NCBI GenBank assembly: GCA_022575985.1
Contig: JAKSXM010000014.1
Location: 12,958,001-13,022,000 of the forward strand
Origin: Anagrus nilaparvatae
Lineage: Eukaryota; Arthropoda; Insecta; Hymenoptera; Mymaridae
Length of the DNA stretch: 64,000 bases
Reading direction: 5' to 3'
In this document: positions 5,726 to 50,130 of the stretch, piece after piece
Position numbering within the stretch: the stretch's first letter is position 1
Layout of the letters: each line of letters opens with the position of its first letter
Translations under genes and position numbers: made by a program
The notes under the pieces: model-generated
Told to the model about the DNA's origin: nothing
Databases searched by the model: none
The model's input: only the letters and a program-made list of their open reading frames with translations

Positions 5726-5734
5726 ATTTTTCGA

Positions 5735-30720: not shown

Positions 30721-30823
30721 TTGGAGAAAAAAAATTTCAAAAAATTTCAGATTACGTAGATTAAGTAAGTCTTTCTTTGCCAATACAGCAATGGTGGGCA
30801 GGTCGGATCATCGGAACGGCCTC

Positions 30824-31429
30824 AAAGAGCATCCCGGAATGTTAGGGGAAAATCTGCACCAGAATGATATCTAAAAAACCTTTTACAGATTGTTTATACA
30901 CAAAAAAATTTCGAATTGGAATTTTGCTCCCAGCTGCACTTCATGGGGCAGGGGGGGCAAAAACGTGTTTTTTTTCTCTTTTTTTTTTTCAAAAATCTGT
31001 CAAAAATTCATATCTCTGGTTCTTTGGTACCAAAATAGGTCTATATAGTCTTGAAAGATTTGTGCTTGATACCTTTTTCACATACAAAAATCAAAAAATA
31101 ATTATGCCTACTTTAGGAACCCTTAAATTCAAAAATGCTGAAGGCTAACATTAAAAATTTTACTTTAAAATTCAATTATTTTGCTATATCAAAAATTATC
31201 TCTCTGGAAAATTTATATGTTTTTTATCTATCAAATCCGTTCAAAGAAAAAGACACAAAAAGCCCCCCAAAGGAAAAAACACGCCCCCCCCCCTTCCCCA
31301 TGAAGTGCAGCTGGGAGCAAAATTCCAACGGGGAACTTATTACTTTTTTTTGTGTATAAACAATCTGTAAAAGGTTTTTTAGATATCATTCTGGTGCAGA
31401 TTTTCCCCTAATATTCCGGGATGCTCTTT
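30824..31429. mobile_element. Fold-back element (family F4)
   Basis: About 145-bp arms: AAAGAGCATCCCGGAATGTT at the left, AATATTCCGGGATGCTCTTT at the right, including the shared inner block TCCCAGCTGCACTTCATGGG. The arms flank a ~310-bp centre. Plus-strand open frames here (30,864-31,359) span both arms and do not resemble proteins. Confidence 0.85.
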
Positions 31430-31439
31430 TTTCCATGTT

Positions 31440-32340
31440 TTTATAACATAAAGATAGGAAAATCCTGAAATTTTTAGCCATCTAGGTCTTAAACAGCCCG
31501 ATTTATGGCCAATCGAACTCATTAGGCGGCTCTCGACCAGCATTAGTGCTTTTCGGGAAAATGGTTAAAATTATAAATATAAGCTTGAAAAAAAATTCTT
31601 CTTCAATAAATCCATGTCTGCCATTAGTTTTTCGAAAAAACCGCAATATCTCATTTTCCGCCATTCTTTTTTGTTTTGGCGGACCGGTATAAATGTACTG
31701 TCAGATGTCGCGTTGAACAAAAAACCAGCCAAAGAGTTTTTTTTTTTGTCAAAAACTAATGTAACATGTTAAAGACTGTTTTTGATTATTATCATTTTTT
31801 AACAAATAAAGTAAATTTCTGTTAATAAAATTAATTTTTTTATTAGATAAACGAACAGCCAAGGAAAATATATTCCATAATAATCCAAAACTTTTCTTTT
31901 TACGATAAAATTTAAGCGAGTTATGCATTTTTCAAGTTATAATGTCGTTTTAGAGCCTAAAATTGGAATCAGTATAAAAATGGTAGTTTTTGACAGTATC
32001 TTTACTTGACCATAACTTGCTTAATTTTCATCGAAAATAGTAATTTTTTTTTCTCGATTTTATTCGATTCTAAAAGAAAAAAAGTCAATTATTTTAACCC
32101 CTTATGGTAAATTAAATAAAGATGTATTAAAAATGCGGAATTATTCTAAAACAGCCTAAAATTGACCTTAATGGCCGAAACCAAGATTTTTTTTCGGACA
32201 GATCGATGGGATTCCAGTTTAGAAAAATTTTCAAAAAAAAAATGGCGGAAAATGAGATATTGCGGATTTTCTTAAAACGCATTTTCCCATTTTTCGGAAT
32301 TTCCCGGAAATATGAACTCGGACATATCATTTTTTATTAT
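31440..32340. repeat. Degenerate fold-back remnant
   Basis: CCGCAATATCTCATTTTCCG at about 31,651 and its inverse at about 32,243 mark two arms. The centre has sequence like family F1 (TTTTTACGATAAAATTTAAG, CGAGTTATGCATTTTTCAAG). A foreign 62-bp segment sits just inside the left arm. Confidence 0.65.
31676..31737. repeat. 62-bp exact copy of a Polinton gene segment
   Basis: Starts TTGGCGGACCGGTATAAATG and ends CAGCCAAAGAGT. It equals, base for base, the minus strand of 35,989-35,928 inside the small basic-protein gene of the Polinton. It lies outside the element, 706 bp left of the TIR, and is flanked by T runs on both sides. Confidence 0.95.
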
Positions 32341-32436
32341 TGCCTAACTGTCTATAGGTTACACTAGTGTAAGGCTTGTACAACGTGCTCAAAAGCTAAA
32401 ATAAATGGTTTCATCGGATTCCTGGGGAAAAAATAC

Positions 32437-32442
32437 TACGGG
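32437..32442. repeat. Polinton target-site duplication, left
   Basis: TACGGG, identical to 48,583-48,588. Six base pairs is the known Polinton/Maverick duplication length. Confidence 0.95.
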
Positions 32443-32636
32443 AGTAGTTAAGTATATACTATGAACCTATTTTTTTTTTTTGCTGCTGATTCAGCAGTTT
32501 TATAGTGTCACCAAGAGCTTGTATTTTTTATGTACAAAATGATATGCTATATATATATTGTTTATACATACGATAAAGGTATCAAGTTTCATTTGTTATA
32601 TGTAGTTATCGATTATTTTTTATGCTTTATAATTTT
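32443..32636. repeat. Polinton left terminal inverted repeat
   Basis: 194 bp. It differs from the right TIR only in T-run length, one TA unit and one A/G. An internal palindrome, CTGCTGATTCAGCAG, lies about 40 bp from the end, where a protein-primed origin or integrase site could be. The next 630 bp (32,637-33,264) is AT-rich with no gene. Confidence 0.95.
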
Positions 32637-33264
32637 AGCAGTATGAAGCGAATTTTATGTATATATATGACTCATTGCTCGAGGTAAGAAATGTAGTTCA
32701 TAGTTTCTGCGTTGCTTTTTGCTGACAATTGTTTTTTTTTGTTTTTTTTATGCTTACTTTTTTGTATGTGAAAGAATTTGTTATTTGATGTTTATAAACT
32801 AATTTATAAAAAAAATCTAATAATAGAATTTTAATTATGACAATGAATCAGGAATTTATTGGTGATTTGTGCTAGGTTTCTGAAAGAAATAAGCTTAATT
32901 TTTAATTTTTGGTTATTTATTGATACAAATAATATATTTTTAGATACATAGGTAAATATTATATTAAAGTAAATGTTATATTATAGTAAATATTTATATT
33001 ATTATAAAATGATGCGTAACAATTGATTTAAAAAGAAAAAAATTACAAAAATACAATCAAATAAGGTATTAAAAATCTAGCTTATTACATATGGTACTGA
33101 TCAAATAATCAAAATTCAATGCATAAAGTTCTTTTAAGAAAAGATGTGAATTTTTTATGCTAATTAATATAATGCTAATTAATATATAATTTTATCATAA
33201 TAAAATTTATAGGTAGTGATTCATAAGTTATATATTATGTGAAACAATATTATTTTTTAAGATA

Positions 33265-33837
33265 TTATAAATCTAATTCCTTACTTACACAACTTAAAAG
33301 GTAGTATAAATTTAATGCAAATAACTCTTTTAAGAATAGATGTGAATCAAATAGACTTGTAGCTTCTTTTTCGGGCATCTCTTGCTGTAGCTGTTTTCTT
33401 AATTCTTCGGTGACTTTTTCATCAAATTGTTCGCCTATCAATTTTACGTCTTTGACATTTACTTGGGAAATTAAATTTTTTTTGTTTTCGTTCAAGCATT
33501 GAGTAATGTAATTTATAAATTTATCTTTCAACGCATTTAAGTAACTTTTTTTAGCGTATAAATTTTCAAATTTCATATCAATCGAACTTGATAAATTTTT
33601 TAGTGAGTCAAAGCTAATTTTTTTTAACACCAGACTTACTTTAAACTTTTTATTTTCGGATTTGATTTCTTCTCCTGATATTTCTATTGCTTTTTCATAA
33701 TAGCTACGGGTTAATTTGATTGTGAAATATTTGTCTTGGAAAGTTTGCTCGCTGCTTGATTCTTTTCCATGGAAGTAATTATCTATTTCTGTAAAATACG
33801 TTTGTAGATTTTTCCATCCTTCGTAGTCGAGAGCCAA
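33265..33837 (-). CDS. Unidentified Polinton protein, left-end gene
   Basis: An open frame of up to 190 codons ending at 33,265. The first in-frame codon after the preceding stop region that could start is not an ATG (33,835-33,837 is TTG), so the true start is uncertain; the frame overlaps the end of the upstream gene by 55 bp. It could be an extension of that gene after a frameshift, a second exon, or a separate gene. The product is Lys/Glu-rich with segments KLTRSYYEKAIEISGEEIK and EELRKQLQQEMPEKE and a hydrophobic C-terminus FALNLYYLLSCVSKELDL. I do not recognise a family or catalytic motif. Confidence 0.5.
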   Translation of the reverse strand: MALDYEGWKNLQTYFTEIDNYFHGKESSSEQTFQDKYFTIKLTRSYYEKAIEISGEEIKSENKKFKVSLVLKKISFDSLKNLSSSIDMKFENLYAKKSYLNALKDKFINYITQCLNENKKNLISQVNVKDVKLIGEQFDEKVTEELRKQLQQEMPEKEATSLFDSHLFLKELFALNLYYLLSCVSKELDL

Positions 33838-34187
33838 GTACGCTCCAACTCTAAATTTATAACTTCGTTTGCTATGATTTTGTGTAGAAATATTACCTTG
33901 TCACGACCACGTACGTAAACTTTTCCTGCTTTTTTTGATATTAGCTGTAAATTTCTCGTCAAAATTTTACCGGTTATGTCTCCCTCATACCAATCTAATC
34001 CGTGATGGTTGTGGGTTAACCAATTGTTTTGTCTTTGGGAGTCGTATGATATTTTTGTAGAATTGTATGGAGGTTTTGTTATCCAGTGTGATTGAGATTC
34101 GCTGTTTAGTGCTATTATTGCGACTTCTTTCGGTAAAGTCTTGTCTTCGATACCCTTAAAAAACTGTATATCCACAACGACATCCAT
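33783..34187 (-). CDS. Conserved Polinton-associated protein, unknown function
   Basis: 134 codons from an ATG at 34,187. It starts 54 bp after the capsid gene stop, as the next cistron. The N-terminus MDVVVDIQFFKGIEDK looks like a beta strand ending in Asp-x-Gln. The centre has QNNWLTHNHHGLDWYEGDIT (residues ~52-72) with clustered His, Asp and Trp, and later KAGKVYVRGRDKVIFL. I have the impression that this pattern recurs in insect virus-like elements; an Asp-first strand plus a His/Asp cluster would suit a nuclease fold, but this is a guess. The last ~20 codons overlap the downstream frame, so its end may be altered by a frameshift. Confidence 0.6.
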   Translation of the reverse strand: MDVVVDIQFFKGIEDKTLPKEVAIIALNSESQSHWITKPPYNSTKISYDSQRQNNWLTHNHHGLDWYEGDITGKILTRNLQLISKKAGKVYVRGRDKVIFLHKIIANEVINLELERTWLSTTKDGKIYKRILQK

Positions 34188-34240
34188 TCTCGGTATGAAA
34201 AATACGGCTAGCCGATCTGACTGTTTGTTTAAAAAGTTGA

Positions 34241-35572
34241 TTAACCACTAAAGTCGATAAAGCACTGTCGAGCAGCATCTATTTCGCATATCGAGTTATA
34301 CTCGGAATAAATGACGCAGTTGACAATTTCTTTCAGAGCTTCTGCGAAGCGAATTTCTATGCGCACGCTACCGTGCTTTACGAGATTCCAGTGGCCTTCG
34401 CTGGCTGATAGGTCGGGTGTCAAGTCAAATACGTAGAGGCAGAATCCTGCTGGATAGGAAAACCTGTCGATTCTGTTACCTTGATTAAGGAAATGAATTC
34501 CAGTCCCGCTGAATAATGTATGGTAAGCCTCGAAGTAAGCCGCATTGTTGCCGGTGTAAACGGGTTGTAGTGGTGAGGAGGACGGTACCTGGACACCATC
34601 TACGTACATCGACAGATAGTTTAGATTAAAATGCTGGAAATTAAATGGGTTGAGTTTTCGGTCCCCGTTGAAAGCTTTATTCGATACAAATCCTAAGATG
34701 ATGCGTTTCGGTATCTGACCTATAATAACTGAATCTATCGTGTGATTCAATATCCCCTGCGAAATAACGACTGATTTAACGTCGACTCTGGTTAAGTCGT
34801 ACTTTGCCGTGGTTTTTGACAATGTATTTGCATGTGCGATGAGAACACCCGGTGAAATTTTTACTCTTCGTATGTGTAATGTAGCTTCGTCAAAATGTAC
34901 GTAATGCGTACCCGTCTCGTCCATTAGTGCAAAAGCTGGTCGGGCTTTTATTAGTCTTACTTTAAAATCGACACCGTTCAGCAGGAACTTGTTTTTGTTG
35001 AAGACGTCACTGTGTAAGTGACCAATCATATCTATGCTTTTGTTAGCATTTAACATCATGCGACGTCCTTCTAGACCAATATTACCGTCTTTTAAGTCAT
35101 CCATCTTTCCCGCCGTGTCGTCGTACCAGCCGACACATTGTAGATGCGAATTTTTCGAATCATATCCATAGTTGAGCAAATTTTCAATGTATGCTCGGTA
35201 ACCATAACCGTTACCCGGCGGAGTTACGATTTTTTGGTTAAAAGAGACTTCCACTTGACTGAAAAGCGAATGCATAAAATTATTTACCGGTCCAATGTTT
35301 TTTATTTTCAGCAAAGTTGCAGCGTCAGCTTCGGCTAGGTCCTCGTCCGTTTTGATTGTAACTTTTAGGTTTAGCATGGTATGGGCCAGGTCTAGGTATT
35401 CTTCGGCGTTTCCCGGAATATTGAATTCTATCGGGCAATCATCTGTTAAGCTCGCGATCGGTTTGTAGTTAACCCAATGACTCGATTCGATGGTAACTTG
35501 TGTGGAAGGTACGGTAAGTAATTCTAACTCGCTTTTTATCGATTCGCATGAATGTGTATGCAGGAAAGCCAT
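34241..35572 (-). CDS. Major capsid protein candidate
   Basis: 443 codons, uninterrupted, ATG at 35,572, TAG... stop codon at 34,241. The N-terminal third contains PIEFNIPGNAEEYLDLAHTM (residues 47-66), which I recognise from the multicopy F54H12.2-like proteins of nematode and insect Mavericks, and GYRAYIENLLNYG (124-136). Later segments such as PKRIILGFVSNKAFNGDRKL and NPFNFQHFNLNYLSMYVDG also suit that family. Those proteins are taken as the Polinton double-jelly-roll major capsid proteins. It would form the hexon-like shell. It is the longest intact late-type gene here, placed after the small basic protein and before the two unknown genes. The length is near the family norm. Confidence 0.8.
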   Translation of the reverse strand: MAFLHTHSCESIKSELELLTVPSTQVTIESSHWVNYKPIASLTDDCPIEFNIPGNAEEYLDLAHTMLNLKVTIKTDEDLAEADAATLLKIKNIGPVNNFMHSLFSQVEVSFNQKIVTPPGNGYGYRAYIENLLNYGYDSKNSHLQCVGWYDDTAGKMDDLKDGNIGLEGRRMMLNANKSIDMIGHLHSDVFNKNKFLLNGVDFKVRLIKARPAFALMDETGTHYVHFDEATLHIRRVKISPGVLIAHANTLSKTTAKYDLTRVDVKSVVISQGILNHTIDSVIIGQIPKRIILGFVSNKAFNGDRKLNPFNFQHFNLNYLSMYVDGVQVPSSSPLQPVYTGNNAAYFEAYHTLFSGTGIHFLNQGNRIDRFSYPAGFCLYVFDLTPDLSASEGHWNLVKHGSVRIEIRFAEALKEIVNCVIYSEYNSICEIDAARQCFIDFSG

Positions 35573-35589
35573 TTTGAGTATCTTATATT

Positions 35590-36180
35590 TTAAGAAAAAA
35601 TGTCGGCAAACGTATTCTTACTTGACCGTTTTTTGTCGTTTTTTTGCTTTTTCTGAATCTTTTTTCTTTTGTTTTTTCTTTTTTTCTTTTTTATGCCGTT
35701 TTTTTTTGACGTTGTTTTCCTTTTATTAGTTGTCTCCTTTTTTTTCTTTTTTCTTCATTTTGTTTCTTGCCCAGTTGTACGCAGAGTGCCGAGTGTATTT
35801 AGCAAGTGACTGCTTAGAGCCGGATGTTTCAATTTATAACCTGACCCCTCCATTAGATACTTATCTAGCTGATCCTCTGCTTTTCTCTTTAAATTACCGA
35901 CAGACTCGCGTGCATGGATGCGCAGAGACTCTTTGGCTGGTTTTTTGTTCAACGCGACATCTGACAGTACATTTATACCGGTCCGCCAAGCTTCTTTACC
36001 GACTACCTTAGCCCCTCTTGTAAATAAAGGTAGGATGCTGCGAAACAGTCCGCCAAGAAATGAGCCAATGCCGCTTCCCCGTTGATGTGGTGTTCCAATG
36101 TAAACGCGATTTATACCTGTACTAAATTCACTTCCACCGCTCCCAATTTGACTGTTGTAGTAATCAATGTAGTGGGCCAT
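35590..36180 (-). pseudogene. Small basic, membrane-active-like virion protein
   Basis: ATG at 36,180 after a 35-bp A-rich leader. 141 codons are open to 35,755. The N-terminal part is Gly/Ser-rich (MAHYIDYYNSQIGSGGS), then residues 37-53 form GIGSFLGGLFRSILPLF, a hydrophobic/amphipathic helix, followed by RGAKVVGKEAWRTG. This layout resembles the small virion core or membrane-lytic proteins of adenovirus-like viruses; I cannot name it firmly. A different frame downstream, from about 35,760 to a TAA at 35,590, is extremely Lys/Arg-rich and ends NTFADIFS. It may be the displaced basic tail after one or more frameshifts in the A-rich tract (35,650-35,760). The segment 35,928-35,989 is duplicated outside the element. 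Confidence 0.55.
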
Positions 36181-36213
36181 TTTGTTTTTTTTGTTTTTTT
36201 TATTTTTTTTTGA

Positions 36214-37047
36214 CTAATCCGTGCGCTTGAAATGCAACGTCACCGTCAACGTACCGACATCAAATGGCACTGCTGAACCGTATTGGTCGCGCAAGTCAAT
36301 TTCAATGGATCTGAAAGACTTGTGTAATAAGGGTACGTAAGAAGGGGGTGAGAAACTTTTAACCCTAACTGATCCATAAACAAACTTTTCGGTATCGAGA
36401 GAGATGCTCCTTAATAGCGGGGTATGCACATCACCCGTGATCCTTGGTTCAAGAATATCCGAATATATCATTATCATGTTGGGTATGTTTGCCGTGAGAT
36501 TCGGTTGTCTTTTAGCGGTTACTTGCTCTTTTTCTGGGGCTCGTAGCTCATAAGTTGAATCCGTGAAACCTAATATGCTTCTGATGACTTCGGAGACTTT
36601 CAGTGTGTGTAGTGAGTTGCTCCTGCAGTTTTTATCGCAAGTCAGTTTGAGGGAAACGAAGCCTCCACGTTTGCGTTCGTATGCGAAATGCTTTTTTACT
36701 GATTCCTGTGCATTTAATTCCACCAGAAACGATTCTATATCGTCGTAAATGCCTGGACTTATGTGGGATTCAATTTTTGACTATGCTGTAGAGACTCCAG
36801 TTTTTGGTGTCTCTTTTTCTTTTCCAGTAAAATGCAACAACCGAGTAGTAAGTTTTCTATCGATCGAATTGTCCTTGACGTGATGCATAGTCATTGGTAT
36901 TTGAATTTCGGCCAAAGCCACACTCCACTCTCCATCTAAATCAATCTGTTGCGGCAGGTACGTGCTAAAATGCGTCGTCATATTGTCAGGATATACATTC
37001 ATGCTGCTGTTGCTAGGCAGCACAATGGAGAATTGATTTTTCTTCAT
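36214..37047 (-). pseudogene. Minor capsid (penton-like) candidate with in-frame TAG
   Basis: ATG at 37,047 directly behind an A tract. The N-terminus NQFSIVLPSNSSMNVYPDN and the segment GEWSVALAEIQIPMTMHH are typical of the protein that accompanies the capsid gene in insect and nematode Polintons, thought to be a single-jelly-roll vertex protein. After 88 codons an in-frame TAG (36,781-36,783) interrupts; the same frame then stays open for 188 codons to 36,214 with segments GGFVSLKLTCDKNCRSNSL and SVRVKSFSPPSYVPLLHKSF. So one base change splits an otherwise complete 277-codon reading frame. A start at the downstream GTG is unlikely in an animal cell. Confidence 0.65.
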
Positions 37048-37083
37048 TTTTTTTTTTTTTTTTTAAATATTTTTAGCATTTAC

Positions 37084-38168
37084 TTAAATTGGAACTAATT
37101 CAGAAGCGAGAATCCAGGAATTGAACTTTGCCGGATATCCACGCCAGCTGACAAAATGTTTCTTTGCCTTTCCGCGACCTTTAGTTTGCAGAATTTGATC
37201 AATTTCGAAAACAGCATCGGTGAGATTTTTTTTACCGGACACAGTTCTTCCTCGTAGTATATACCGTCTATGGCTTCGCCATCCAGATCCTCCAACGTGT
37301 AGACCGGCGGTTGTCTCGCACAAGAGACACGCGCGATTCTGAAAATTTCAAGAGTCCATCCACTCTCGTAACCCTTCCGGAAAGTTTCTGGAGCACGGCT
37401 GACTCGAACCAGCGTTCCAACGTTATATTTTGGTATTTTATGTAATTTCCTCTTTAGCGAGTATCTTTTTCTCAAATTGAAGCGTGCTGTATCTGCGTTA
37501 TTTAAATTTACACTCGCTGGAGTCATTTTTGTGCCTGAATGTATCGTGTTGTTGTACGAGTGGACTATAGACGGTAGTACGTCAATATATCTCCGTGTAT
37601 TTTTGTACGTGAAGAAACGCCATAAGCGATGCTTGATTGTCTGAATCGCGCGCTCGGCGATTGCAGCTTTTGCGTCTGGGTTTCGAATCAATCGTAATTC
37701 AATATTATAATCCTTGAAGACATCCTGTACGACCTTAGCCGTGAATTTACGGCCACGGTCCGTTTGGTAAAGAATCGGTAATTTATCCCTGTTGTTGGAA
37801 AATATTTTGCGTAGAGCTGTAGCCACAGAAATGCCTGATTTGTCTTTAAGAGGTTCGACCCACAAAAATTTACTTAAACAGTCAATAACAAAGAGTACGT
37901 AAGTGTAATTATCGTTGAATGATTTGATCGAACGGAAATCGGCCAAATCAGCCTCGAAACAGTCGTATATATTGGATACATCGTACGTCCGTCGTGGAAA
38001 CTTTTTTCTAACCAATTTATGCTGATTATAGGCGTCTTGTTCGATCAGCCAATCTTTAACTTTTGTTTTATGGAATTAGCTTTTTGTGTTTCGGAATAAA
38101 TGATAGGCTCCGGCGAAAGCCGAAGTTTGCTCAGGCTCGTAATACAATTTGCTCAGTTTGCTTTCCAT
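37084..38168 (-). pseudogene. INT: Retroviral-type integrase with chromodomain, broken
   Basis: ATG at 38,168. Thirty codons (containing LYYEPEQTSAFAGAY) precede an in-frame TAA at 38,076-38,078; the same frame continues to the catalytic core. In the piece starting at 38,015 the DDE residues are D23 (EADLADF), D86 (YQTDRGRKF) and E121 (AAIAERAIQTIK), spaced about 35 apart as in retroviral integrases. Then comes an SH3-like segment (YNVGTLVRVSRAPETF). At an A8 run (37,226-37,233) the frame must shift by one to reach a chromodomain (FEIDQILQTKGRGKAKKHF, then VSWRGYPAKFNSWI) ending at 37,084. The C-terminal chromodomain is known for Polinton integrases. The role is insertion of the element DNA with 6-bp duplications. 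It carries one nonsense codon and one frameshift. Confidence 0.85.
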
Positions 38169-38310
38169 TATTTTTTTTATTTTTTTTCTGTACTGGTGTT
38201 ACCTTCTGTTTTTTTGTTTTGTTTTGTTTTTTTTTTTCATTACTCTGTAACTTCTTGCTTTTCTGTTTGCTTATTTTATTTTTTTTCTTTTTTTCTTCAA
38301 TTTTAGCGTT

Positions 38311-38806
38311 TTAATTTTTCTTTTTATTGATACCAATGAGTTTCTGTATACGATCAAAAAATTTTTCGAACGTAATTTTTGAAACCATGCAGCAGGCTGT
38401 TACGAGAGCAGCGGTTCGTTCACCAGGTTCGGAGTCAAAAGATAACATCTTCGTGAATGCTTTATCGGCTAATATTCGGTCGGCTTTGCGTCTGTCCTTG
38501 TCAGAGTTGTAAGCTAAGTCATGTTGTAAGCAAGCTTTATCTAAGGGATTTATACCTTGCTCACCTTGCTGTAAACGCTGATCCAAGTGTGTACCAGCCC
38601 CGCAAAATTCGTAGCCTCTCGGAAAATTTAATTCGAAAGGTAACAAATCAATTAGCGCATCTAATACGCTATTTTCTTCTTCCTTTTTTTTTTGCATCGT
38701 CTTCTTCTTCACCGTTGAGCATTTTAAATGCTTCTGATTCAGGTTCTACATTAATCTCTTCAGATACTAGATTAATATCAAACGCTTCTATCATAGGTGA
38801 TTCCAT
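38311..38806 (-). pseudogene. Phospholipase A2-domain virion protein, A10 frameshift
   Basis: The likely start is the ATG at 38,806, 16 bp inside the end of the preceding gene and in another frame. An acidic N-terminal segment (SEEINVEPESEAFKML) runs into an A10 run at 38,694-38,703, after which that frame stops. The +1 or -1 frame holds the PLA2 domain: calcium loop YEFCGAGTHLDQRL and the catalytic HDLAY pair (His64-Asp65 counted from the ATG at 38,712). This pattern is the parvovirus VP1-type secreted PLA2, used by virions to leave endosomes. PLA2-type proteins have been described in relatives of Polintons. A separate start at 38,712 (MKKKTMQKKK) would also give an intact PLA2 domain of 133 codons. 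Confidence 0.75.
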
Positions 38807-39714
38807 GTTCTTAGCGATGAATTTGCTTCAGGACTGAACGCGGATATAGAATCGTTTTTTCGTAGCCTCTTATGTTTATTTTTTTTTCTGTTTAATTTCG
38901 GTGTGACGTCCGAGTAATTTTCTCCTTCTTCTTCTTCTCCTTCTTCTTCTTCAGCTAGTGCGTCTTTATACGTGGATTTGTTTACCGACGCAAACGATTT
39001 GCTTCTATTGTTATTATTATTTATGTTTCTTTCTGGTGGTGGTGGTGTTGAAGACGCGAGAATGGAAAGCAGAGAGTTGTGAGGCGCAACAACTACGCCG
39101 TCTTTCCAAAAGTCTTTGTTTCCGACAAAATTCTCAGGCGAACCAGCGGCTCGGAGAGCAGAACAAAACTGACTTCTTCCCTTTGCTCTGATTCTTTTTC
39201 TCGATCGCATGGCGTCGTTCACTAAGTCAACAATGCTCGAGTCAGGTAGGAGATGTCCACGCACGCGTACTCTTCCGGCATCGTCCCAAGATACGCTGTT
39301 TACTTTTCGCGCAAACATCAAAAAACTTCTGGCTTTTTCGCGATATTTTGCCGGTACGGTGTTTATAATTTCGTCGTCGAAATTACGTGATGCCTCTTGC
39401 TCGTCGACTTCGTATTGCAATTTTTCTGTTTCCAAATTTTGATTAGCGCGTGAACTCGCTTTTGCAGTTAAAAAGCGTTGCAGAGCTTGTTGATAAGCGT
39501 TGCTCTATGCGTTCAGGTCCGGAAATTCATCGGATTGCAAAATATCCCGCATTAGAGCATCGAGTCTGCTAATGAGTGTGCCCGGAGTTTGTACAGTTTT
39601 TTCCATATCCATGGACAGTAAATGTTGCTGCTGCTGCTGCTGCTGCTGTTGCTGTTGATTAACAGTAGCTTCGTTTTCGGCAGGTACGAGAATCATTTTT
39701 CTAGCGTGATCCAT
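38791..39714 (-). pseudogene. Conserved Polinton protein of unknown role, in-frame TAG
   Basis: ATG at 39,714 behind an A tract. The first 69 codons have MDHARKMILVPAENEATVN, a CAG-encoded Gln run, then TPGTLISRLDALMRDIL, and stop at TAG 39,505-39,507. The same frame is open before and after, to 38,791 (VPAKYREKARSFLMF, then WDDAGRVRVRGHLLPDSSI and RSQFCSALRAAGSPENFVG). The C-terminal part is Glu-rich, then basic (KLNRKKNKHKRLRKNDS). I know this arrangement from arthropod virus-like elements but not its function; a scaffold or core role is possible. The end overlaps the PLA2 gene start by 16 bp. Confidence 0.6.
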
Positions 39715-39723
39715 TTTTTTTTT

Positions 39724-40110
39724 TTATTTAAAAAAAAACTTATCAACAACGGCGGTTATTATAGGTACTAAAAGAGCCGGCAGAAACCCGCCAATACCGC
39801 CGCCGTGCTGTAGAAGTAACTTTTTTTTGCCTGTGAATTTATCGTTTTTTCGTTTGACGCTCAATAATCTCAGCAACTTTGCGTGTTTTTTTAATCGATT
39901 TTTTTCATCCGGTTTAAGCGGTACATTGCCTCTCAATATATTAAGCGCACATTCGCACAAACACTTTACGAGATTTTTATCGGCGCTGCCGAGTAAAACT
40001 GCTCTCTGTTTACCCTCTAGTTGACTTAACGCTCTCAATATGTTTGCGTGTTTTTTCGAAATTGGACACTTTTTTCTCCCACCCCCGCAGCGTCGTCCTT
40101 TTGGCGCCAT
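39724..40110 (-). CDS. Basic protein with hydrophobic C-terminus
   Basis: 128 codons, intact. The ATG at 40,110 shares a base with the TAA of the ATPase gene (TAATG), an arrangement unusual for animal genes and common in compact viral genomes. The N-terminus is strongly basic (MAPKGRRCGGGRKKCPISKK). The middle has cysteines (LVKCLCECALNI) and a basic helix (KPDEKNRLKKHAKLLRLL), and residues 103-122 form GGGIGGFLPALLVPIITAVV. The basic plus glycine/hydrophobic layout suits a DNA-binding core protein or a small virion protein with a membrane-active tail. The product is not identified. Stop at 39,724. Confidence 0.65.
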   Translation of the reverse strand: MAPKGRRCGGGRKKCPISKKHANILRALSQLEGKQRAVLLGSADKNLVKCLCECALNILRGNVPLKPDEKNRLKKHAKLLRLLSVKRKNDKFTGKKKLLLQHGGGIGGFLPALLVPIITAVVDKFFFK

Positions 40111-40815
40111 TACAAATAAATCACTGATGGTGGAGCGCTTGAGTTTTTCATTGACGTCTTTTTTCTTTTACCCCTATTATTATTATTATTAATGGGTACG
40201 TAAACTGTTTGATGCAATGCCTCGTGTGGGAAAATGTCTGTACGATAACGTAAATTCTCCGGTGTGGACTGCTTGAGATCTACCAGAAGATAACCGTGTG
40301 GTTTAGCCGTGGCGTCGCGGTAAGCTTGCTGGACAAAAAGCGGTTGTTCGGGTGAAAGCTGATGAGCTAAATGTCTTATTTGGGATTTGTCCCTGGGATT
40401 TTTGAGCAGTACCAGATAATTTGTCTTTTGTAAATCACTCGTATAGTCCGTGGAATCGGGTAAACCTTCGTGAAATTCGATGTTTTCACCCAATCCTCTG
40501 TAGGTTTCCTGCCACATTGAGTAATAAAGTAAAATGCGATCAAACCGACAGTCGTTCATGCGATCTACATGTTCGAGAAAATTTTTTATAAAAACTGTCT
40601 TACCGGCTCCTTTTTTTTTTTGGTACACCAATCATCATCATCATGAACACCAACAACAACAACATCAAAGAGTAAAATGAAAGGAAAAAAAAAAAGTTAT
40701 TATGTTATTTAATTAAAAGCAAAAATTTTTACGTTAAATTGACAAATTACCTGTTGGACCGCTGATCATACATGTCCATGGATGCTTCCATGCATCGATA
40801 TGGATCCATTTTTTT
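40110..40815 (-). pseudogene. Packaging ATPase, split Walker A, Walker B apparently lost
   Basis: Exon 1 (about 40,815-40,751) encodes HPWTCMISGPT and exon 2 (40,609-40,110) begins GAGKTVFIKNF. A 141-bp intron with GT at 40,749-40,750 and AG at 40,610-40,611 lies between, so splicing yields the Walker A loop GPTGAGKT. The 3' end has NYLVLLKNPRDKSQIRHLAH, AYRDATAKPHGYLLVDLKQ and TDIFPHEALHQTVY, as expected for the Polinton FtsK/HerA-type DNA-packaging ATPase. Between EFHEGLPDSTDYTSD and NYLVLL I see no Walker B (hydrophobic stretch then DD/DE), and the protein is short (~190 codons), so an internal deletion is likely. The ATG at 40,807 is in another frame from exon 1, hinting at a small indel near the start. 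Confidence 0.7.
40610..40750 (-). other. Intron inside the ATPase P-loop
   Basis: Donor GTAATT; a T13 tract and a TTG microsatellite; the first AG after the T tract is the predicted acceptor, although it follows an A11 run. The intron is 141 bp, which keeps the Walker A codons in phase. Confidence 0.65.
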
Positions 40816-41252
40816 TATTTAAATGTAATTTTTTAACTTACGTAGTTTCGCTGCGTGAGCAAATACGAGCTCGCGCAGCCGACAAAAGCTGCTTGCGCAG
40901 CAGCGGACGCCGCCCCCCCGCTCTCCCGAAGGGCGCGGCGCGTGCGCGAGCACGAAAAACTCGCAAAAAATTAGACTAATCTTGCGTTTTTTCTTTTTTT
41001 TTATTGATATTATTTATTGATACAAACAATGCGTGAAATCGATGTACCATTCGTACGTAAGTACGTACGTACGTACGACTGTACGAGGAATTTTTGGCAA
41101 GGAAAAAAATTAAATAGGAATCAGATTATAATAAAAATAAAAAGTACACAAATAATTATTATTTTTTTCTTTTTTTTATCAAAAATTTTTTCTTTTTATT
41201 TTTTTTTCATAATAATGCAGTATCATACATGTTTTTTTTTTAAATTTTTTAT
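40816..41252. other. ATPase-polymerase gap with GC-rich palindromic tract
   Basis: A GC-rich stretch at 40,855-40,960 (GCTGCTTGCGCAGCAGC, CGCGCGCGAGC-like steps) stands out in the AT-rich element. A GTAC repeat lies at 41,058-41,078 (TACGTACGTACGTAC). Both could be regulatory, replication-related or chance; no gene. Confidence 0.5.
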
Positions 41253-44200
41253 CTACATATAAAAACCATATGGAAAACTTTTACTTAAACCTACGAATCT
41301 TCGTTTGCTAAAAACTGGTCTACAAATTTTCGTTTCAGTCCGGGTAACGACATCGTGAAATTGCGTGCGTCTAATAGCAATATTGTCACGTACAGTAATT
41401 GGATCATTTTGTTCGCACAGTACCAGTGATTCAACCGTGTCAAAATTGATTATCTGACTATTTTTGAAATTTAACCTAATACCCTTGACCTTGCAAATTT
41501 CCACAATAGTACCATCGTCTGTCAACACCTTGTAAGTGTAAAATTTTGGTCCAGCGGATACAAATGATGTTATATACGCGTTTTCACCGTATGCAGTCGA
41601 TTCGTTGGTGAGGTCTCCGAGTAAGGGTCCTGTTGGCAGGTCTGGGATCCCTGAATTCGGGTTAGATAAGTATATTACCGAATCTGTGTCCACATAGTAA
41701 GCAGCGCTACCTAAATGTTCAAGATAATTGTACAATTTGAGTCGAGCTTGAGCCGTCACGAAAGCCGCGATCACGACACTCGCGGTATTCAGAGGTTCCG
41801 GATTGCATTCTTTGAAGCGCGTACTCAAATATAAAACATTGTCGTCAACGGGTAGCAAACCTGTCACCTCGGTAATCGGGCAGGTTAAAGTCGCGTGCAG
41901 CTCGGCTGGGTCGTTTACCACATAAGTCTTTATTTTATTTTCCTGCTGGCCAAAGAAACCCCACAGCGAATTCAAACATAATTTTGCCAAGCCCCTGAAC
42001 GACGGATTACTTTCAATCTTCTCACGGTCTAACTCTATACCCTCGTTACGTGAAATATCTAAAACGTATTCATCAACGGTAGAATACTGTTCGGGTAAAC
42101 CGCTAGCTTGCGTCTTTAATTTGAAAAAAGTGTCTATGTATTCCGCAAATAATCCGCCCTTTTTCGTCACTGGATCAAATTCCGTCATCTCGTACTGCCA
42201 AATTTCGTAAATCTCCTTAATTACGTAACCCCGTTCGACTGCTTTTTTCAATTCCAGCGAAACCCACGTACCCACAAAGACTCTTAAATTTTCGTCCTCG
42301 TGACGACACGCCTCTTGTCTCATTTCCTCGCAACAAGTACGACACAGGCCAAACAAGAGCTTACCGTGCATTTCTACGGGTAAAACAGGATGCGTGAGAT
42401 TCCTCGGTGGTAGAATTTTGCAGTAAACTAGTCCCTCGACCCTGTCCACAAAATTTTCGTAATTTTGACCAGCGAATTCACGACATTCCGGTTCGCCGAC
42501 GTATAATTTTGGGTGAGCAAGCGGAAATTTACCACGCTTGCAAATGTATGGATAAAGCGACGTCACATCAACGTAATTTATTTTTTCGCCAGCACCGACT
42601 CGATACGACTTTATGAAATTTTCAGTTCTGCCGCCGTAAAAAGCTTCTCTCGGATTTAATGGCGGATTTCTGGTCAAATCGTGCTGGTCGAGATAATTGC
42701 TTATTTCGGGATTTTGTTCAAGTTCCATTCTGAATTCGCATTCCCATTTCACAATAAGTTCATAGTTATTGGCTCTGATTCTTCTGCTAATGGCCAAAGT
42801 TCTGCTATAACGATCTTCGAGCGTTTCGAAATTGTACTCGCTTAGCGGTTTGTCTCTGTTTCTCACGAAGCAACGAATACAACCGTGCCAATAACAACCC
42901 ATCATCTGAAGACATATACCGTTATGCGCATCGGTTTGGCTCGGAGGAATAAATCCATCTACCTTAACGTTTATAGGAAGCCTGATTTCACGACAACGAC
43001 CAGCGTGCTGAATTTCCCGATTCAATTCCCTTTCCATCCAAACTAACCACTGGACGGCTATCACAGACTGGTTGTCGCTAAATCTATAACCCCTGGCCGG
43101 TAAGATACCTACTGTGTTTGGTTTTAAAAAATTTTTCCTAAAAACCTTCATAAATGCACTGGCAATCGTCGTAGCTTCCGTGAAGGGACAAATTCTACCG
43201 ATCTCCAAAAAAGATTCTCTAAATTTCAAACAAGCTTTCCTCAACACATCTACGTCATTTTTGCAATACGACTCAATCTCGACTTGAAAATCAAACAAAC
43301 GTCCGGAATTTTTTCTCTCCCTGTACCAGGTCAAAAACTTTTCTCTTTTATCGCGCGACATACTGTCGACGCAATAAAACTCGATATCCGGTAACGGACA
43401 AATGTAATTCTGGTTTTCAGGTGTGTTAAAGAGGTGTGGAAAATCCCCCTTAATCATATCCGGCAAACCAAAAGCTTTAGGCAAAGCGCTCAGAGCCATG
43501 TGAAAATAATTCAGACTGTCTATGAATTTAACTTTTTTTTCAACAGTCATCAATACAATTTTCGACCCGTTCAATATCAGCTTTGGTTTCAGACGCATTT
43601 CCTCGACCATGTGCTTTAATAAAAATTGATTGTCAAAACTTTGACCGTTATGAGAAATACATATGACTTTTGAAAAATCCTTTTTCGGCATTAGCGCTAA
43701 TGTCAAAAAATTTTTCACAGGTTCTTCGCGGAAAATGTATTCTCGACGCCCGCATTTCGCACAGAATTGCAAGTCCTCGTCTCGCAAACAAAAAGTACAA
43801 ACTTGTTGCGCAACGCATAAATTCGGCTTGTGCAACTTAACCGCACAATCACCGACTAAAGTTTCACATTGCGTGGTTTCAAAGTCGAAAAATATAAAAA
43901 TTACTTTTGACTCATTATCTCTTTGAGACAGGGGCTGCATAAAACATAAATGATTCACGTTCACGCGTTTTAGGCACGTGTTGCAAAAAATTTCGTTGCA
44001 CTTGTGTTTCACGATATCGTCAATCTTTATCATTTTAAGACACGAAGAACAGTGTCTCACACCAAGGCAAACCGAGGCAACATTTTTATAACACCCGTGT
44101 GCTCTGTGTTTTTCAAAACAGCTATCATTCAGAAAATATCTCTGACACAAATCGCAAAACACAAACTGCTGAAACCCCACGATCAACTGATCACAGCGTG

Positions 44201-45259
44201 GAATTTGGAAACATTTGTAACATCTACTCGAACATCTGTGATACCTGTCGTTCGAATATTTTTTGTTACACGGTATGCAGTAACCTCTAGACCCTGAAGC
44301 TGCATTCAGATTTAAAATCGGGCTGTAATGGTTAGTGCGCGCAAAATACATTATTCTCAGTGTGTAGCGAATTTCGTTACCGGTATTTACCACGTATCAA
44401 GAACCGTCAAACATCGGGGCATCACCTCTACCGAAATTTTCGTCATCATACACCACTATGGACACTCCCAAATTAGCGTAATATATTTGAAATTGATGAA
44501 TCTCGTTTATTCCGCACCCAAACTGCGGGACCCATACGCCAGCGTCACGTACCAGTTGTTTTGCTGCAAAAAGTTGCTTTCTCTTTTTCCTTATTTTGCG
44601 CAAGTCTTGATGCAAAATTCCGCTTCGCAATTGACCCCTTTTAGCGTGCACATGTGCGACACAGAGAGATCGTGCCAGACACAAATTGTCTCGCGTAATT
44701 TTCAAAATCGACCTTTTGTATACATCGAATAGATTCAACGATGTCAAAGATACGCGCCCTCTGCCAGCAGGAACCCGAACAATCGAGGACACGGCTTCAA
44801 GTGAATCATCGCAGACGTCAAAAACGGCACCGCTCTGAGCCGCGCGTGCAATCAATGCCAAAACGTCTTTATGATCAAATTTTTCCACCGGTCTAAAACT
44901 CAGCCAAAGAGGCTTGTCAAATTTTATAGAACGCAATTCAAAACCAATGTAATCACTTGGCAACGCGGATTCCAACAATAAATCCGTCAATTCCTCAATA
45001 CAATTTTCAACCCAGGCTTGTGCGTCAATATTGTCCGTCTCGGTCGGCTGTTTAAACTTCACGCAAATCTCACTACCAGTCACCCTAAATCTACTATATC
45101 TACGAGTTTTTTTACTTAAAATAATTAAATGATTAGAATCATAATTACTATCAACAGTCTCATTATCATCAACAGCATCACAATTATTATTATCACTGCT
45201 GCTGATACTTGACTCTAGGCTATCAGGCTTACTGCTTCCATAACCAAGACCAATCTGTG
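41253..45259 (-). pseudogene. POLB: Protein-primed DNA polymerase B, main exon with one TGA
   Basis: From an acceptor AG at 45,260-45,261 the exon is open to TGA at 44,397-44,399, then in the same frame to 41,253. Counting from 44,393: a Cys/His-rich zinc-binding region (39-150); exonuclease motifs FFDFET (168-173), SHNGQSFD (247-254) and YCKND (376-380); YGGRTE (586-591); polymerase motif A DVTSLYP (609-615); motif B KLCLNSLWGFFGQ (804-816); motif C YVDTDS (900-905); then SAGPKFYTY (946-954). This is the Polinton/adenovirus-like protein-primed family B enzyme that would copy the element from its TIRs. All catalytic residues are present. The single TGA lies upstream of the zinc region. Without readthrough the N-terminal ~295 codons are severed. 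Confidence 0.9.
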
Positions 45260-45347
45260 CTAAAAAAAAAATGAAAAAATGCATATTATTTTATCGCAAG
45301 AAAATCATACGCACATTTATGTACAGAACAGAAAATATCCACATTAC

Positions 45348-46040
45348 CTTCCAAGGTAAGCCCGTTTTCATCCTGACCAGAAGGGTTCTCTAAAAAAGCT
45401 TTCAAAAATGGATAATCGTCGAAAATTTCTATAGGAACACTCTCTATATCACAACCATCCAGATGCTCGAAAACATCAATTTCACAATCAGGTACCGGGT
45501 TTTCATGCGTAGTACCTATTTCTATTTTTCCTTTTTTATTTTTTTTCGATTTAAGCTGGTCTATATAAAAAGATAAAAAAATAAGCATCCTACTTGCAAA
45601 AAAAAAAACAAATCATAATAATAAATCTTAAAAATTTACCTGCTTCGCTCGAATTTTTTCTTTTCACAATTTCCTTAACCACAGACGCAGTCGACTCGAC
45701 ATCGTCAGCATGTATATCATCTGCACTACACCCAGGAGTCGGATTCACGTGTACAGTATCTTTATATTTCAAATTAAGTTGATTAGTAACAAAAAAAAAA
45801 AAAATAGAAAAGCATTACAAAAATTGCATTTCACAGTCAAAAAAAAAAATCAGAATAACGCCAAAAAATTTGCAAATTTACCTGCAACCTTTAAATTTCT
45901 TTCATTCACAATTTTTTTGCCAGAAGTTTTAACTTGCTTACTCGCGTTTAAGCGCTGATTAACATCGACAAAATCTTTGCTACTGCATCCAGGAGTGGGG
46001 TTTTCAAAAACAGTACCTTTGTATTTTAATTTAAGCTGGT
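45348..46040 (-). other. POLB: Tandemly duplicated phase-1 exons 5' of polymerase
   Basis: Exon b 46,040-45,882 (159 bp), exon c about 45,779-45,640, exon d 45,560-45,348 (213 bp). Each begins with the DQLK / NQLN-type motif. Exons b and c share KYKxTVxxNPTPGCS and end in a Lys-rich ...VAG / ...EAG. Donors read GTAAATTT (b, c) and GTAATG (d); acceptors b and d read TATAG. Exon c lacks an obvious AG at the same place (TACTAATCAACTT). All junctions are after the first codon base, so exons can be added or skipped without changing frame. The chain splices into the polymerase exon at 45,259 (AQIGLGYGSSKPDS). Confidence 0.65.
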
Positions 46041-46203
46041 CTATAAAAAAAAAACGAATATTCGTGAAAAAAATACCAATTTATTCTCAAAACATCATAA
46101 TATTTAACAACATGAAAAATTTACCTACTACTCGAATCTTTTTTCCCTATTACATTATTATCTGCTAAAAAAAAAAATCATTATTAACTTCAATGCGTGT
46201 GAG

Positions 46204-46352
46204 GTATACTGCAGCGCAAATCACAAATTCCACATCTACATCGATACCACTAACGAAGACTCCGACATCCCTGCTCAAAATGTAAATGAGATGTCAGGGT
46301 TTTCGTTAGTAGTATCGATGTGGGATTTATGATTTGTATGGCAGTATATAAA
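46204..46352. mobile_element. Hairpin MITE inside a Polinton intron
   Basis: About 147 bp folding on itself: TATACTGC ... ACATCGATACCACTAACGAA pairs with TTCGTTAGTAGTATCGATGT ... GCAGTATA. TA at both outer ends is consistent with a mariner-type insertion. It lies in the intron between the small acidic exon and exon b. Confidence 0.7.
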
Positions 46353-46500
46353 AAGTGAAAACAAGTTTAATTTAATATTTTTAATATATAGCCAGGGTGA
46401 GATGTCGAGTAAAATTTTTGTTTTTATTTTGGGTTTAGGGGGAAAGAGTTCGAGAAAAATTTTTATTCAAATACTATATCAAATAAAAATTTAGTAATAC

Positions 46501-46566
46501 CTTGTAAATTTTCGTCAGACGGTAAAATTACATCTAAAAATTCATCGTCAAGACCATCTTCAAAAT
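46501..46566 (-). other. Small acidic exon 5' of polymerase
   Basis: 66 bp between AG (46,567-46,568) and GT (46,499-46,500), encoding FEDGLDDEFLDVILPSDENL. It links exon 46,967-46,637 with the duplicated exons. An uncertain further short exon lies at about 46,131-46,165. Confidence 0.55.
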
Positions 46567-46636
46567 CTAATTGCAAAGAGAAAAACCATGAATAAAAATT
46601 TAACATTCAGCATATAAAAACAAAAAAAAAACTTAC

Positions 46637-46967
46637 ATTTAATGGTGTTGTATTTATTCATGAACAAATCAAAACACGGAAGCCCTGCTTGGCCTCTTCT
46701 CCTCAAAATGTCACCAAAAATTAAAATAACATCATTTTCGACACACACGTTTAATAACAAGTTTTTTGCAATAACACGCAACGTTGGAAGCGCGCACAAA
46801 CTAAAAATTAATTTGATTTTTTTCAAAATCACCTTTATCGGGCAGACTTCTAATTGTGATCTCCACTTGAGATCACAAATTTTACGCACATTTGGCTCGC
46901 GCCCATAAGCGATTTTCATCAACAATTTTACAATTATTAATAAATTGAGCTTCCTGGATAAAACCAT
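46637..46967 (-). CDS. Probable first exon of the polymerase gene
   Basis: ATG at 46,967, open to a strong donor GTAAGT at 46,631-46,636, giving about 110 codons (MVLSRKLNLLIIVKLLMKI at the start, GDILRRRGQAGLPCFDLFMN near the end). The next acceptor (CAATTAG, 46,567) joins in phase. It is basic and Leu/Ile-rich with four cysteines; it does not resemble a protein I know. By position and splice phase it would be the N-terminus of the multi-exon polymerase protein, the region that in protein-primed polymerases may hold the terminal-protein function. It could also be a separate short gene reading through the donor. Confidence 0.5.
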
Positions 46968-47396
46968 TTTTAAAAAATTTTTTTCACTTTTTTGTTTCAA
47001 GAAAAATTTTAAAAGTCACCTAAGAAAGATAAAGCGATACTAAACATATGTGTTATAATAAAATCGCTTCATGTATAATGTCTCTCCTATAAAAGTTCAA
47101 CTCATCAAAAAATAGAAAAAATGCAAAAATTTCTTACAACAAGAAAAGAGCATAAAAGTCAATTAAAGATAAGACGATACCAAAAATATGTGTCATAATA
47201 AAACAACTTTATGCATACTGTTTATTTTTTTATTTTTTTTTTTTGTTAAAGCTCAAATCGACAAAAACAGAAAAATATATTTAAAAAAAAAACGTTCATT
47301 TTTTCATCTTACAAAAATAATGTCAAATGAAAAAAAACCACATTGTTTTTACAAAATATAATAAATTTTATTGAAAACTTAAATACAAAAAAATAG

Positions 47397-47624
47397 TCAT
47401 TTTTTTTTCATTTTTTCAGTTTTTTCCAGTAAAGGTTTTTTTTCATCTTGAAATGAATCTGTTTTTCCTTTAAAACTAGAGAATCCGTTAAACACGTCCT
47501 TCGAGAAGCTCCATTTATCGCTGGTAACTCTCCTCCAATAAGGTCCGTAATTTCTTTCCCCGTCTTCCCCAGCGTCTTCAAAACGACTATAGTTTACACT
47601 ACAATTCGTTGGCTTATTACCCAT
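47397..47624 (-). CDS. Small right-end gene, possible N-myristoylated protein
   Basis: 75 codons from an ATG at 47,624 that follows an A9 run. The N-terminus MGNKPTNCS fits the N-myristoylation pattern (Gly2, Thr6) with a cysteine at 8 that could be palmitoylated. The rest is polar with many aromatic residues (YGPYWRRVTSDKWSF, then FNGFSSFKGK) and ends in a Lys-rich tail KTEKMKKK. It is the gene nearest the right TIR and is probably the first transcribed. Function unknown; a membrane-anchored or virion-envelope role is speculative. No membrane helix. Confidence 0.5.
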   Translation of the reverse strand: MGNKPTNCSVNYSRFEDAGEDGERNYGPYWRRVTSDKWSFSKDVFNGFSSFKGKTDSFQDEKKPLLEKTEKMKKK

Positions 47625-47859
47625 TTTTTTTTCTTTTTTTAAATAAAACAACAATTTAACAGATGTCATTAACTTCAAAGCTTATGCAAGAATGACTAAG
47701 CAGCGATTCAGAAACCCTAAAAAAGCTACCGAATTTTTCAAAAAAAAAAGGCAAACGACCTCTGTCGACGAAAAAAAAGAACCAAATTTACGTAAAAATT
47801 TTTAATTTCAAAAAATTTTTAAAACTCCGAAAATTTTACCTGGTAATTTTACTCTAAAT

Positions 47860-48285
47860 TTCGGTTCAATTAAAATAATTTGATCTTAAAAAAAAATTTT
47901 TTTTTCAATTTCAAAAATTTTCAAAACCCCGAAAATTTTACCTGTTAATTTTTCTCTAAATTTTGGGTTACTGAAAATAATTTGATCACTTAACTACCTA
48001 CAATTACAACAATTTCCAATAGGTTAAAAGGATTCAGCTCATATAAATTTCCAGTAATTTCCGATCGATCCATTAAAATTTAAGGTCTTCGGTAGGTTAT
48101 AGTATAGCCCCAAAAATTTGACCTGTCGACTTTTCTCTGAATTTTAGATTATTTTAAATAATTTGGACATTTAGATACCTAAAATTGTAACGATTTCCAA
48201 CAGGTTTAATGAATTTATGTCAAATAAATTTCGAGCAATTTACGATTGATCAATTAAAATTCAATATCTTCGGTAGGTTGATAAA
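47860..48285. repeat. ~170-bp subterminal tandem repeat
   Basis: Two full units (about 47,935 and 48,108) and a partial one at 47,865. Each contains AATTTTACCTGTTAATTTTT or a variant, CAATTTCCAAxAGGTT, and a CTTCGGTAGGTT end. It lies between the last gene and the right TIR; the left end has no equivalent. Confidence 0.75.
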
Positions 48286-48388
48286 AAAATTTTAACTGAG
48301 TACAAGAATATAAAAATATTTATACATGTAACCAATCAAAAATCAAATCATTATTTCATATTTAACAAAATTTTTAAATTATTATCAA

Positions 48389-48582
48389 AAAATTATAAAG
48401 CATAAAAAACAATCGATAACTACATATAACAAATGAAACTTGATACCTTTATCGTATGTATAAACAATATATATAGCATATCATTTTGTACATAAAAAAT
48501 ACAAGCTCTTGGTGACACTATAAAACTGCTGAATCAGCAGCAAAAAAAAAAAAAATAGGTTCATAGTATATACTTAACTACT
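48389..48582. repeat. Polinton right terminal inverted repeat
   Basis: 194 bp, inverse of 32,443-32,636, ending CTTAACTACT. It holds the same CTGCTGAATCAGCAG palindrome. Confidence 0.95.
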
Positions 48583-48588
48583 TACGGG
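48583..48588. repeat. Polinton target-site duplication, right
   Basis: TACGGG, same as 32,437-32,442. Confidence 0.95.
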
Positions 48589-49130
48589 ATATCAATTTGA
48601 ACATAATCTAAAACAGTATTTAAATCCATTAGAAAAACTGAAAGTTTTAAGAAAATCCCAATTTTGAGGAGTCCAAAAAAAAACTTTCGAGAGCTATCGT
48701 GGGCTCAAAAATCGATGTTTTGGTTTAAATCCAACGAGAAACTTATTTTTTTTACTTATATTTTCGAGTTCTGCAGGCGCGTTAGGAATCCCGGATACTT
48801 TGAAAAAAAAACCAGTCTTATAAAAAAATTCAAATCATCATTATTCAAAATATGAAAATATTGACAGCAAATACTTAGCTGTAGCTTACAGTAGCTGGAT
48901 AGAAGGTCCGGATAAAAAATTCGTAGACATTTTTAGTGTAGAAAAGACCCCAACATACAGTTTTTTTTGTCATTTTGATCGCATAATAAAACGCTTCCAG
49001 GTCACCGTGTTCAATGCAAACATTTAGTAAGTGAATTTACCAATGCAAGAGTTATTTTTTTTTAATTTATGATTTGCTTCTACCATCTAGAAAAATCGGA
49101 AAATATGTTGGGGTTAATTAGTTCTATTTT
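48589..49130. other. Right flank of the Polinton, no gene seen
   Basis: AT-rich, no coding frame or repeat recognised. Confidence 0.5.
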
Positions 49131-49900: not shown

Positions 49901-49909
49901 TATCGATCG

Positions 49910-50130
49910 GGACTTGGAATAAAAATTTTTTTATAAGAAACTTGTTCGGGATTGTGATTTTTTATCGGAATTTCGATCGAAATTTTTTATCGGAAACTCG
50001 ATCGGAATTTTGATTTTTTATAGGAAATTCAATAAAAATTTTTTTTATCGGAAAGTCGATCGGAAAGTTGATCAAATTCCGATCAGAAATCCGAACAATT
50101 TTTGATCGGAATTTCTTTTTCCGATCAACT
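49910..50130. repeat. Short GATCGGAA repeat tract
   Basis: Degenerate 20-24-bp repeats of TTTTATCGGAAATTCGATCG. No gene. 50,131-50,345 is plain AT-rich sequence. Confidence 0.8.

What the first reader, a model, noticed from the sequence alone, without database searches (positions are those of the whole stretch)
31676..31737. 62-bp exact Polinton gene piece outside the element
This segment equals 35,928-35,989 (minus strand) with no mismatch, lies 706 bp outside the left TIR, and is bracketed by T runs inside an older fold-back remnant. An exact short piece of a mobile element in a repeat field could be repair filler copied during or after Polinton insertion, or an antisense source for small-RNA defence.
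Basis: seen in the sequence. Interest (0 to 1): 0.75.

Follow-up and report, generated by a model that had tools for sequence, protein, structure and literature searches.

The report
Repair scar filled with transposon DNA
A break in a hairpin-prone repeat appears to have been mended by losing about 430 bases and pasting in a 62-base copy of a gene from a nearby virus-like transposon, a known kind of DNA repair scar rather than a functional element.

Summary
In detail: window 31676-31737 equals 35928-35989 (minus strand) exactly over 62 bp. It lies 706 bp outside a Polinton (TIRs 32443-32636 / 48389-48582, 6-bp TSD TACGGG). In the 488-Mb genome the 62-mer has 36 reported matches, 17 exact over its full length; the other 35 lie in Polinton sequence, so this is the only isolated copy found. 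It sits at a deletion junction. The host repeat is an abundant, nearly palindromic fold-back family. In this copy about 434 bp of the left inner arm, up to the loop base, is replaced by the 62 bp. A paralog 590 kb away (97%) has no Polinton, no 62-mer and still has the arm. Both junctions show 3-bp microhomology (TTG, AGT), with no target-site duplication or poly(A). This is the signature of error-prone break or fork repair with a templated filler (class-2 TSI-like). The likeliest donor is the neighbouring Polinton, inverted, 4.2 kb away; 16 identical donors exist, so this is inferred. 'During insertion' is untested and 'small-RNA source' has no support. A clear case of a known kind; low interest.

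The parts
31676..31737 (+). 62-bp templated filler, identical to the Polinton gene piece 35928-35989 (minus); 31676-31678 (TTG) and 31735-31737 (AGT) are shared with the recipient, leaving 56 bp of unambiguous insert
35928..35989 (-). nearest and most likely donor, inside the 141-aa Polinton ORF 35755-36180 (minus)
   Evidence: 15 other full-length exact Polinton copies exist elsewhere
31427..31675 (+). left outer arm and start of left inner arm of the fold-back (palindrome) repeat
31738..32307 (+). loop and right inner arm of the same fold-back repeat; the matching left inner arm (about 434 bp) is missing at the filler
32437..32442 (+). left target-site duplication of the Polinton (TACGGG)
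32443..48582 (-). Polinton: TIRs 32443-32636 / 48389-48582 (1 mismatch and two 2-bp gaps), rve integrase ORF 37095-38015, type-B DNA polymerase ORF 41253-44393
48583..48588 (+). right target-site duplication of the Polinton (TACGGG)

Best explanation
The 62 bp is a templated filler left by error-prone repair of a double-strand break or collapsed fork in a hairpin-prone palindromic repeat. The break lost about 434 bp of the left inner arm, up to the loop base (shown by comparison with relatives and a paralog). A 3' end ending in TTG annealed to TTG in a Polinton copy, 62 nt were copied, and the new end annealed by AGT to the other break end (inferred from the microhomologies). The donor was most likely the adjacent Polinton in inverted orientation 4.2 kb away, so the repair would postdate its insertion (inferred). 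The enzyme, polymerase-theta-type end joining or microhomology-mediated template switching, is not determined. The piece most likely has no function of its own.
For: Exact 62-bp copy, the only isolated copy among 36 matches. Of 39 other fold-back copies examined, 28 keep the left inner arm (3 of these with an insertion in it; for L010 this was seen only in its longer stretch L075) and 11 lack part or all of it in the stretch fetched; some of the 39 look like duplicates of one another, so they are not 39 independent cases. None of the 39 places is among the 36 matches to the 62-mer. Paralog L075 matches window 29788-31676, 31739-32442 and 48583-51799 at about 97%, without Polinton, without 62-mer and with the arm. 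Junction microhomology is TTG and AGT; a random breakpoint pair has 3 bp or more with probability 0.077, so both about 0.006 if independent. No TSD or poly(A) flanks the insert. Nearly palindromic relatives (L018 and L022: arms 702-753 bp, 96-97% identical gaps aside, loop about 102-103 nt; L015: 92% over 499 bp) show a plausible break-prone structure.
Against: At 62 bp it is longer than usual for polymerase-theta inserts ('generally small (<25 bp)', PMC12426944, passages). A template 4.2 kb away is farther than the usual break-flanking template. Fifteen other full-length exact donors exist, so a cis donor is not proven. Both junctions lie in T-rich sequence whose run lengths differ by a few bases among relatives, so the 3-bp microhomologies rest on an alignment of simple sequence. 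No foreign templated filler was seen at the other arm deletions whose junctions I printed (13 loci; filler search in own locus and window for 3 of them), so the filler is not a habit of this repeat.
Confidence: 0.87

Rival explanations
1. Patch capture, a variant of the repair-filler reading whose odds overlap with it: a short Polinton DNA (extrachromosomal or degraded) or cDNA fragment from any copy was ligated into the break, rather than copied in place from the neighbour.
For: 16 exact genomic sources; class-2 templated sequence insertions in human are described as such patches (PMC5110952, passages).
Against: The only isolated copy found lies 4.2 kb from a Polinton; a random site would be that close to one of 35 copies with probability about 6e-4, though the case was noticed because both lie in one window, which weakens the figure. 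Microhomology at both ends fits priming but does not exclude ligation.
Confidence: 0.25
2. The filler arose in the same event as Polinton integration, as collateral repair during insertion 706 bp away (odds overlap with the best explanation).
For: Both are derived in the window copy relative to paralog L075; they lie close together.
Against: The Polinton has a clean 6-bp TSD, an ordinary integration; nothing links the two sites.
Confidence: 0.08
3. The piece is a small-RNA (piRNA or siRNA) source that helps silence Polintons.
For: It matches 16 Polinton copies exactly and is inverted relative to its neighbour, so a joint transcript could pair over 62 bp.
Against: Single isolated copy; no short isolated piece among the matches of three further fully scored 121-bp Polinton pieces; the anatomy is explained by repair alone.
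Confidence: 0.02
4. Assembly or amplification artefact (inverted chimeric join with short microhomology).
For: Chimeric reads from amplified DNA typically show inverted joins with short microhomology (recalled, no call).
Against: It needs two joins and a 434-bp loss in the consensus of a 40.5-Mb contig.
Confidence: 0.04

Closest known systems
Class 2 templated sequence insertion (TSI/TSIP), human
   Same: Short insert copied from another genomic place, no TSD or poly(A), microdeletion and microhomology at the junctions (PMC5110952, passages)
   Different: Here the donor is a DNA transposon and the nearest donor is 4.2 kb away; an RNA intermediate is not shown; comes with a 434-bp deletion in a palindrome
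Polymerase-theta-mediated end joining with templated insert
   Same: Deletion plus templated insert, joints with a few bp of homology (PMC4490562 and PMC12426944, passages)
   Different: Insert 62 bp against generally less than 25 bp; template not immediately beside the break
Replication template switching (FoSTeS/MMBIR)
   Same: Microhomology-primed copying from an inverted template some kb away (recalled)
   Different: No further switches or duplications seen; cannot be told apart from end joining here
Filler DNA at Drosophila CNV breakpoints
   Same: Insertions up to about 60 bp at non-homologous breakpoints (PMC4056370, passages)
   Different: [quoted passage not shown] this one is a perfect copy

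Membership tests
Class 2 templated sequence insertion | Insert identical to a distant genomic sequence | tested here: met
   62/62 identical to 16 Polinton copies, nearest 4.2 kb away
Class 2 templated sequence insertion | No TSD, no poly(A) signal or tract | tested here: met
   Recipient flanks from paralog L075 and relatives show loss, not duplication; the flanking T runs belong to the recipient repeat. No scan for poly(A) signals was run
Class 2 templated sequence insertion | Microdeletion and/or microhomology at junctions | tested here: met
   434-bp loss, TTG and AGT
Class 2 templated sequence insertion | RNA-derived patch | not testable with these tools
   no RNA data
Polymerase-theta end joining | Short microhomology at junctions | tested here: met
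   3 bp each
Polymerase-theta end joining | Insert generally below 25 bp and templated from break-flanking sequence | tested here: not met
   62 bp, nearest template 4.2 kb away; the review says 'generally' and that inserts occasionally exceed 20 consecutive bases
Polymerase-theta end joining | Dependence on POLQ | not testable with these tools
   needs a mutant
Polinton (the donor element) | Protein-primed type-B DNA polymerase | tested here: met
   PF03175 E 5.7e-43 in ORF 41253-44393; protein priming itself not tested
Polinton (the donor element) | Retrovirus-like integrase | tested here: met
   PF00665 E 9.5e-11 in ORF 37095-38015
Polinton (the donor element) | TIRs and 6-bp TSD | tested here: met
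   TACGGG on both sides; the alignments of L010, L011 and L014 overlap by just these 6 bp at the empty site
Polinton (the donor element) | Capsid proteins, packaging ATPase, adenovirus-type protease | tested here: inconclusive
   no Pfam match to such families; 14 of 15 ORFs of 120 aa or more within the element were scanned, Pfam only
piRNA/siRNA source locus | Small RNAs from the piece | not testable with these tools
   no RNA data held

The most novel reading that the evidence does not exclude
Polinton DNA is preferentially used as patch material for breaks near its own insertions, so that palindrome breakage and Polinton activity are coupled (integration, or its extrachromosomal self-replicated DNA, supplies fillers).
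Probability: 0.07. Interest if true: 0.55.

Novelty: new member of a known kind. Interest (0 to 1): 0.25.

Why it matters
It is a well-resolved natural repair scar. The donor element is identifiable at 100% and the recipient's pre-event state is readable from a paralog. Microhomology is visible at both ends, and the break lies in a palindrome. It shows that a short exact transposon piece outside an element can be repair filler and need not be a functional or defence locus.

Tried and rejected
Larger independent Polinton fragment: rejected, palindrome sequence abuts both ends. A recurring 62-bp unit: rejected, 34 of the 34 matches outside the window lie in longer Polinton matches. Same deletion without filler in another copy: the joined-flank query found none that covers both flanks (two hits reach 10 T-rich bases across the junction), but only 40 of 929 candidates were scored.

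Other isolated short Polinton pieces: for the 62-mer and three 121-bp pieces all candidates were scored (36, 38, 33, 28). The shortest match to a 121-bp piece is 73 bp (C317:75761, 99%), which proved to lie inside a diverged copy. Nine matches had no other of my seven pieces within 25 kb: one is C1:3625394, a longer Polinton piece; the other eight span 111 to 121 query positions at 74-92% identity, and their flanks were not fetched. For three 301-bp pieces only 40 of 70, 62 and 57 candidates were scored; one search lists three partial matches of 57-66 bp at 90-95%, each within about 5 kb of a match to one of my Polinton pieces, whose flanks were not fetched. So weak strays could be missed or hidden there.

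Foreign fillers at other arm deletions: the 13 junction regions printed look like simple deletions, truncations or insertions by eye; a filler search (own locus and window only) was run for 3. The protein search with the donor ORF gave 129 relatives, 120 listed, with no name or 'hypothetical protein'. Literature: 'Polinton' with 'templated' (4 papers) and 'Maverick', 'Polinton', 'fragment', 'double-strand break repair' (3 papers) showed no such case in titles and abstract starts. Listings were seen as listings only, except the four papers of which passages were read. Absence from print is not claimed beyond these searches.

Full report
Observation. The 62-mer at 31676-31737 is exactly the reverse complement of 35928-35989 and does not extend in either direction. 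The next longest exact match between the Polinton and the rest of the window is a 22-bp low-complexity run. The piece lies 706 bp from the left TIR start and is flanked by T runs inside a fold-back repeat.

Genome-wide count. The window lies in a 488.7-Mb genome. The 62-mer has 36 matches, all 36 candidates scored, 17 of them exact and full length. Two are the window's own. For the other 34, flanks of 1.5 kb were fetched, and 34 of 34 align to the Polinton gene neighbourhood well beyond the 62 bp. The window copy is therefore the only isolated one found. The adjacent Polinton and 15 others are identical over the 62 bp, so sequence alone does not name the donor.

The recipient. The surrounding repeat is a large family (1845 first-look candidates, 40 scored). 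A typical copy is a near-palindrome: outer arm, inner arm, loop of about 100 nt, inner arm, outer arm. In L018 and L022 the arms align over 702-753 bp at 96-97% identity, gaps aside; in L015, closer to the window copy, at 92% over 499 bp. I examined 39 other copies (L010-L028, L055-L074). 28 keep the left inner arm, 3 of these with an insertion inside it (L010, L016, L070; for L010 seen in its longer stretch L075). 11 lack part or all of it in the stretch fetched. Some copies look like duplicates of one another. The window copy has the left arm only to about 31678 and resumes at the loop base, and the 62 bp lies between. With L015 as yardstick, 434 bp are gone.

Pre-event state. Locus L075 (C1:12396000-12405900, about 590 kb away, inverted) matches window 29788-31676, 31739-32442 and 48583-51799 at about 97%. 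At the empty site the two alignments of L010, which is the same place, overlap by exactly the 6 bp of the TSD, and so do those of L011 and L014. L075 has no 62-mer. It still carries the left inner arm in two pieces (88% and 91% to the window's right arm), interrupted by its own unrelated 1.5-kb insertion. Deletion, filler and Polinton are thus all derived in the window copy, by parsimony.

Junctions. Left: recipient ...TTTTG|AAAA, donor ...AAGCTTG|GCGG, window ...TTTTGGCGG: 3 bp shared (TTG). Right: recipient ...AAAAAGTTTT, donor ...AAAGAGT|CTC, window ...AAAGAGTTTT: 3 bp shared (AGT). Random breakpoint pairs share 3 bp or more in 7.7% of draws, so about 0.6% for both ends if independent. The T runs vary by a few bases among relatives, so the alignment at both junctions is through simple sequence. 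No target-site duplication or poly(A) is present; the T runs belong to the recipient.

Mechanism. Deletion plus an exactly templated insert with microhomology at both ends is the signature of microhomology-primed repair. [quoted passage not shown] Class-2 templated sequence insertions in human have the same junction features (PMC5110952, passages). The length and the 4.2-kb inverted template equally allow replication template switching (recalled); the two cannot be told apart here. The adjacent Polinton is favoured as donor, because a random site lies this close to one of 35 copies with probability about 6e-4. The case was noticed only because both copies share a window, which weakens this figure. 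As a partial control, three 121-bp Polinton pieces with all candidates scored gave no short isolated copy: the shortest match, 73 bp, lies in a diverged Polinton. Three 301-bp pieces gave no exact short stray, but were only partly scored, and three matches of 57-66 bp at 90-95% were not followed up.

Donor. The element is a Polinton by type-B polymerase, rve integrase, TIRs and 6-bp TSD. Capsid, ATPase and protease were not recognised by Pfam in the 14 of 15 ORFs scanned. The donor ORF (141 aa) has no Pfam match and 129 relatives without an informative name among the 120 listed.

Verdict. Simultaneity with Polinton insertion is untested and a small-RNA role unsupported. It is an instructive member of a known class, of low interest.

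Noticed in passing
window 30827-31426: A separate hairpin element of about 600 bp (arms 30824-30957 and 31287-31429, 90% alike) interrupts the outer arm; L017, L018 and L022 run straight from 30826 to 31427.
   Followed up: partly
L075 (C1:12396000-12405900), locus 5167-6694: An unrelated insertion of 1,528 bp inside the left inner arm of the empty-site paralog, with a GC-rich palindromic repeat near one end.
   Followed up: partly
window 38311-38712 (-): Polinton ORF with a phospholipase A2-like domain, PF08398, E 8.1e-7.
   Followed up: no
window 39724-40110 (-): Polinton ORF with a weak, below-cut-off match to adenovirus core protein X, PF05829, E 0.0035.
   Followed up: no
L041 and L042: Two Polinton copies share the same local inverted rearrangement of the gene region around 35344-36107.
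   Followed up: no
window 61576-61595: A 20-bp exact match to the Polinton near its right TIR (about 48284), not only a simple repeat; may be chance.
   Followed up: no
L020, L065, L067, L073: Four palindrome copies lose the left arm within about 35 bp of the loop base (read by eye), which hints at a recurrent breakpoint near the palindrome centre.
   Followed up: partly
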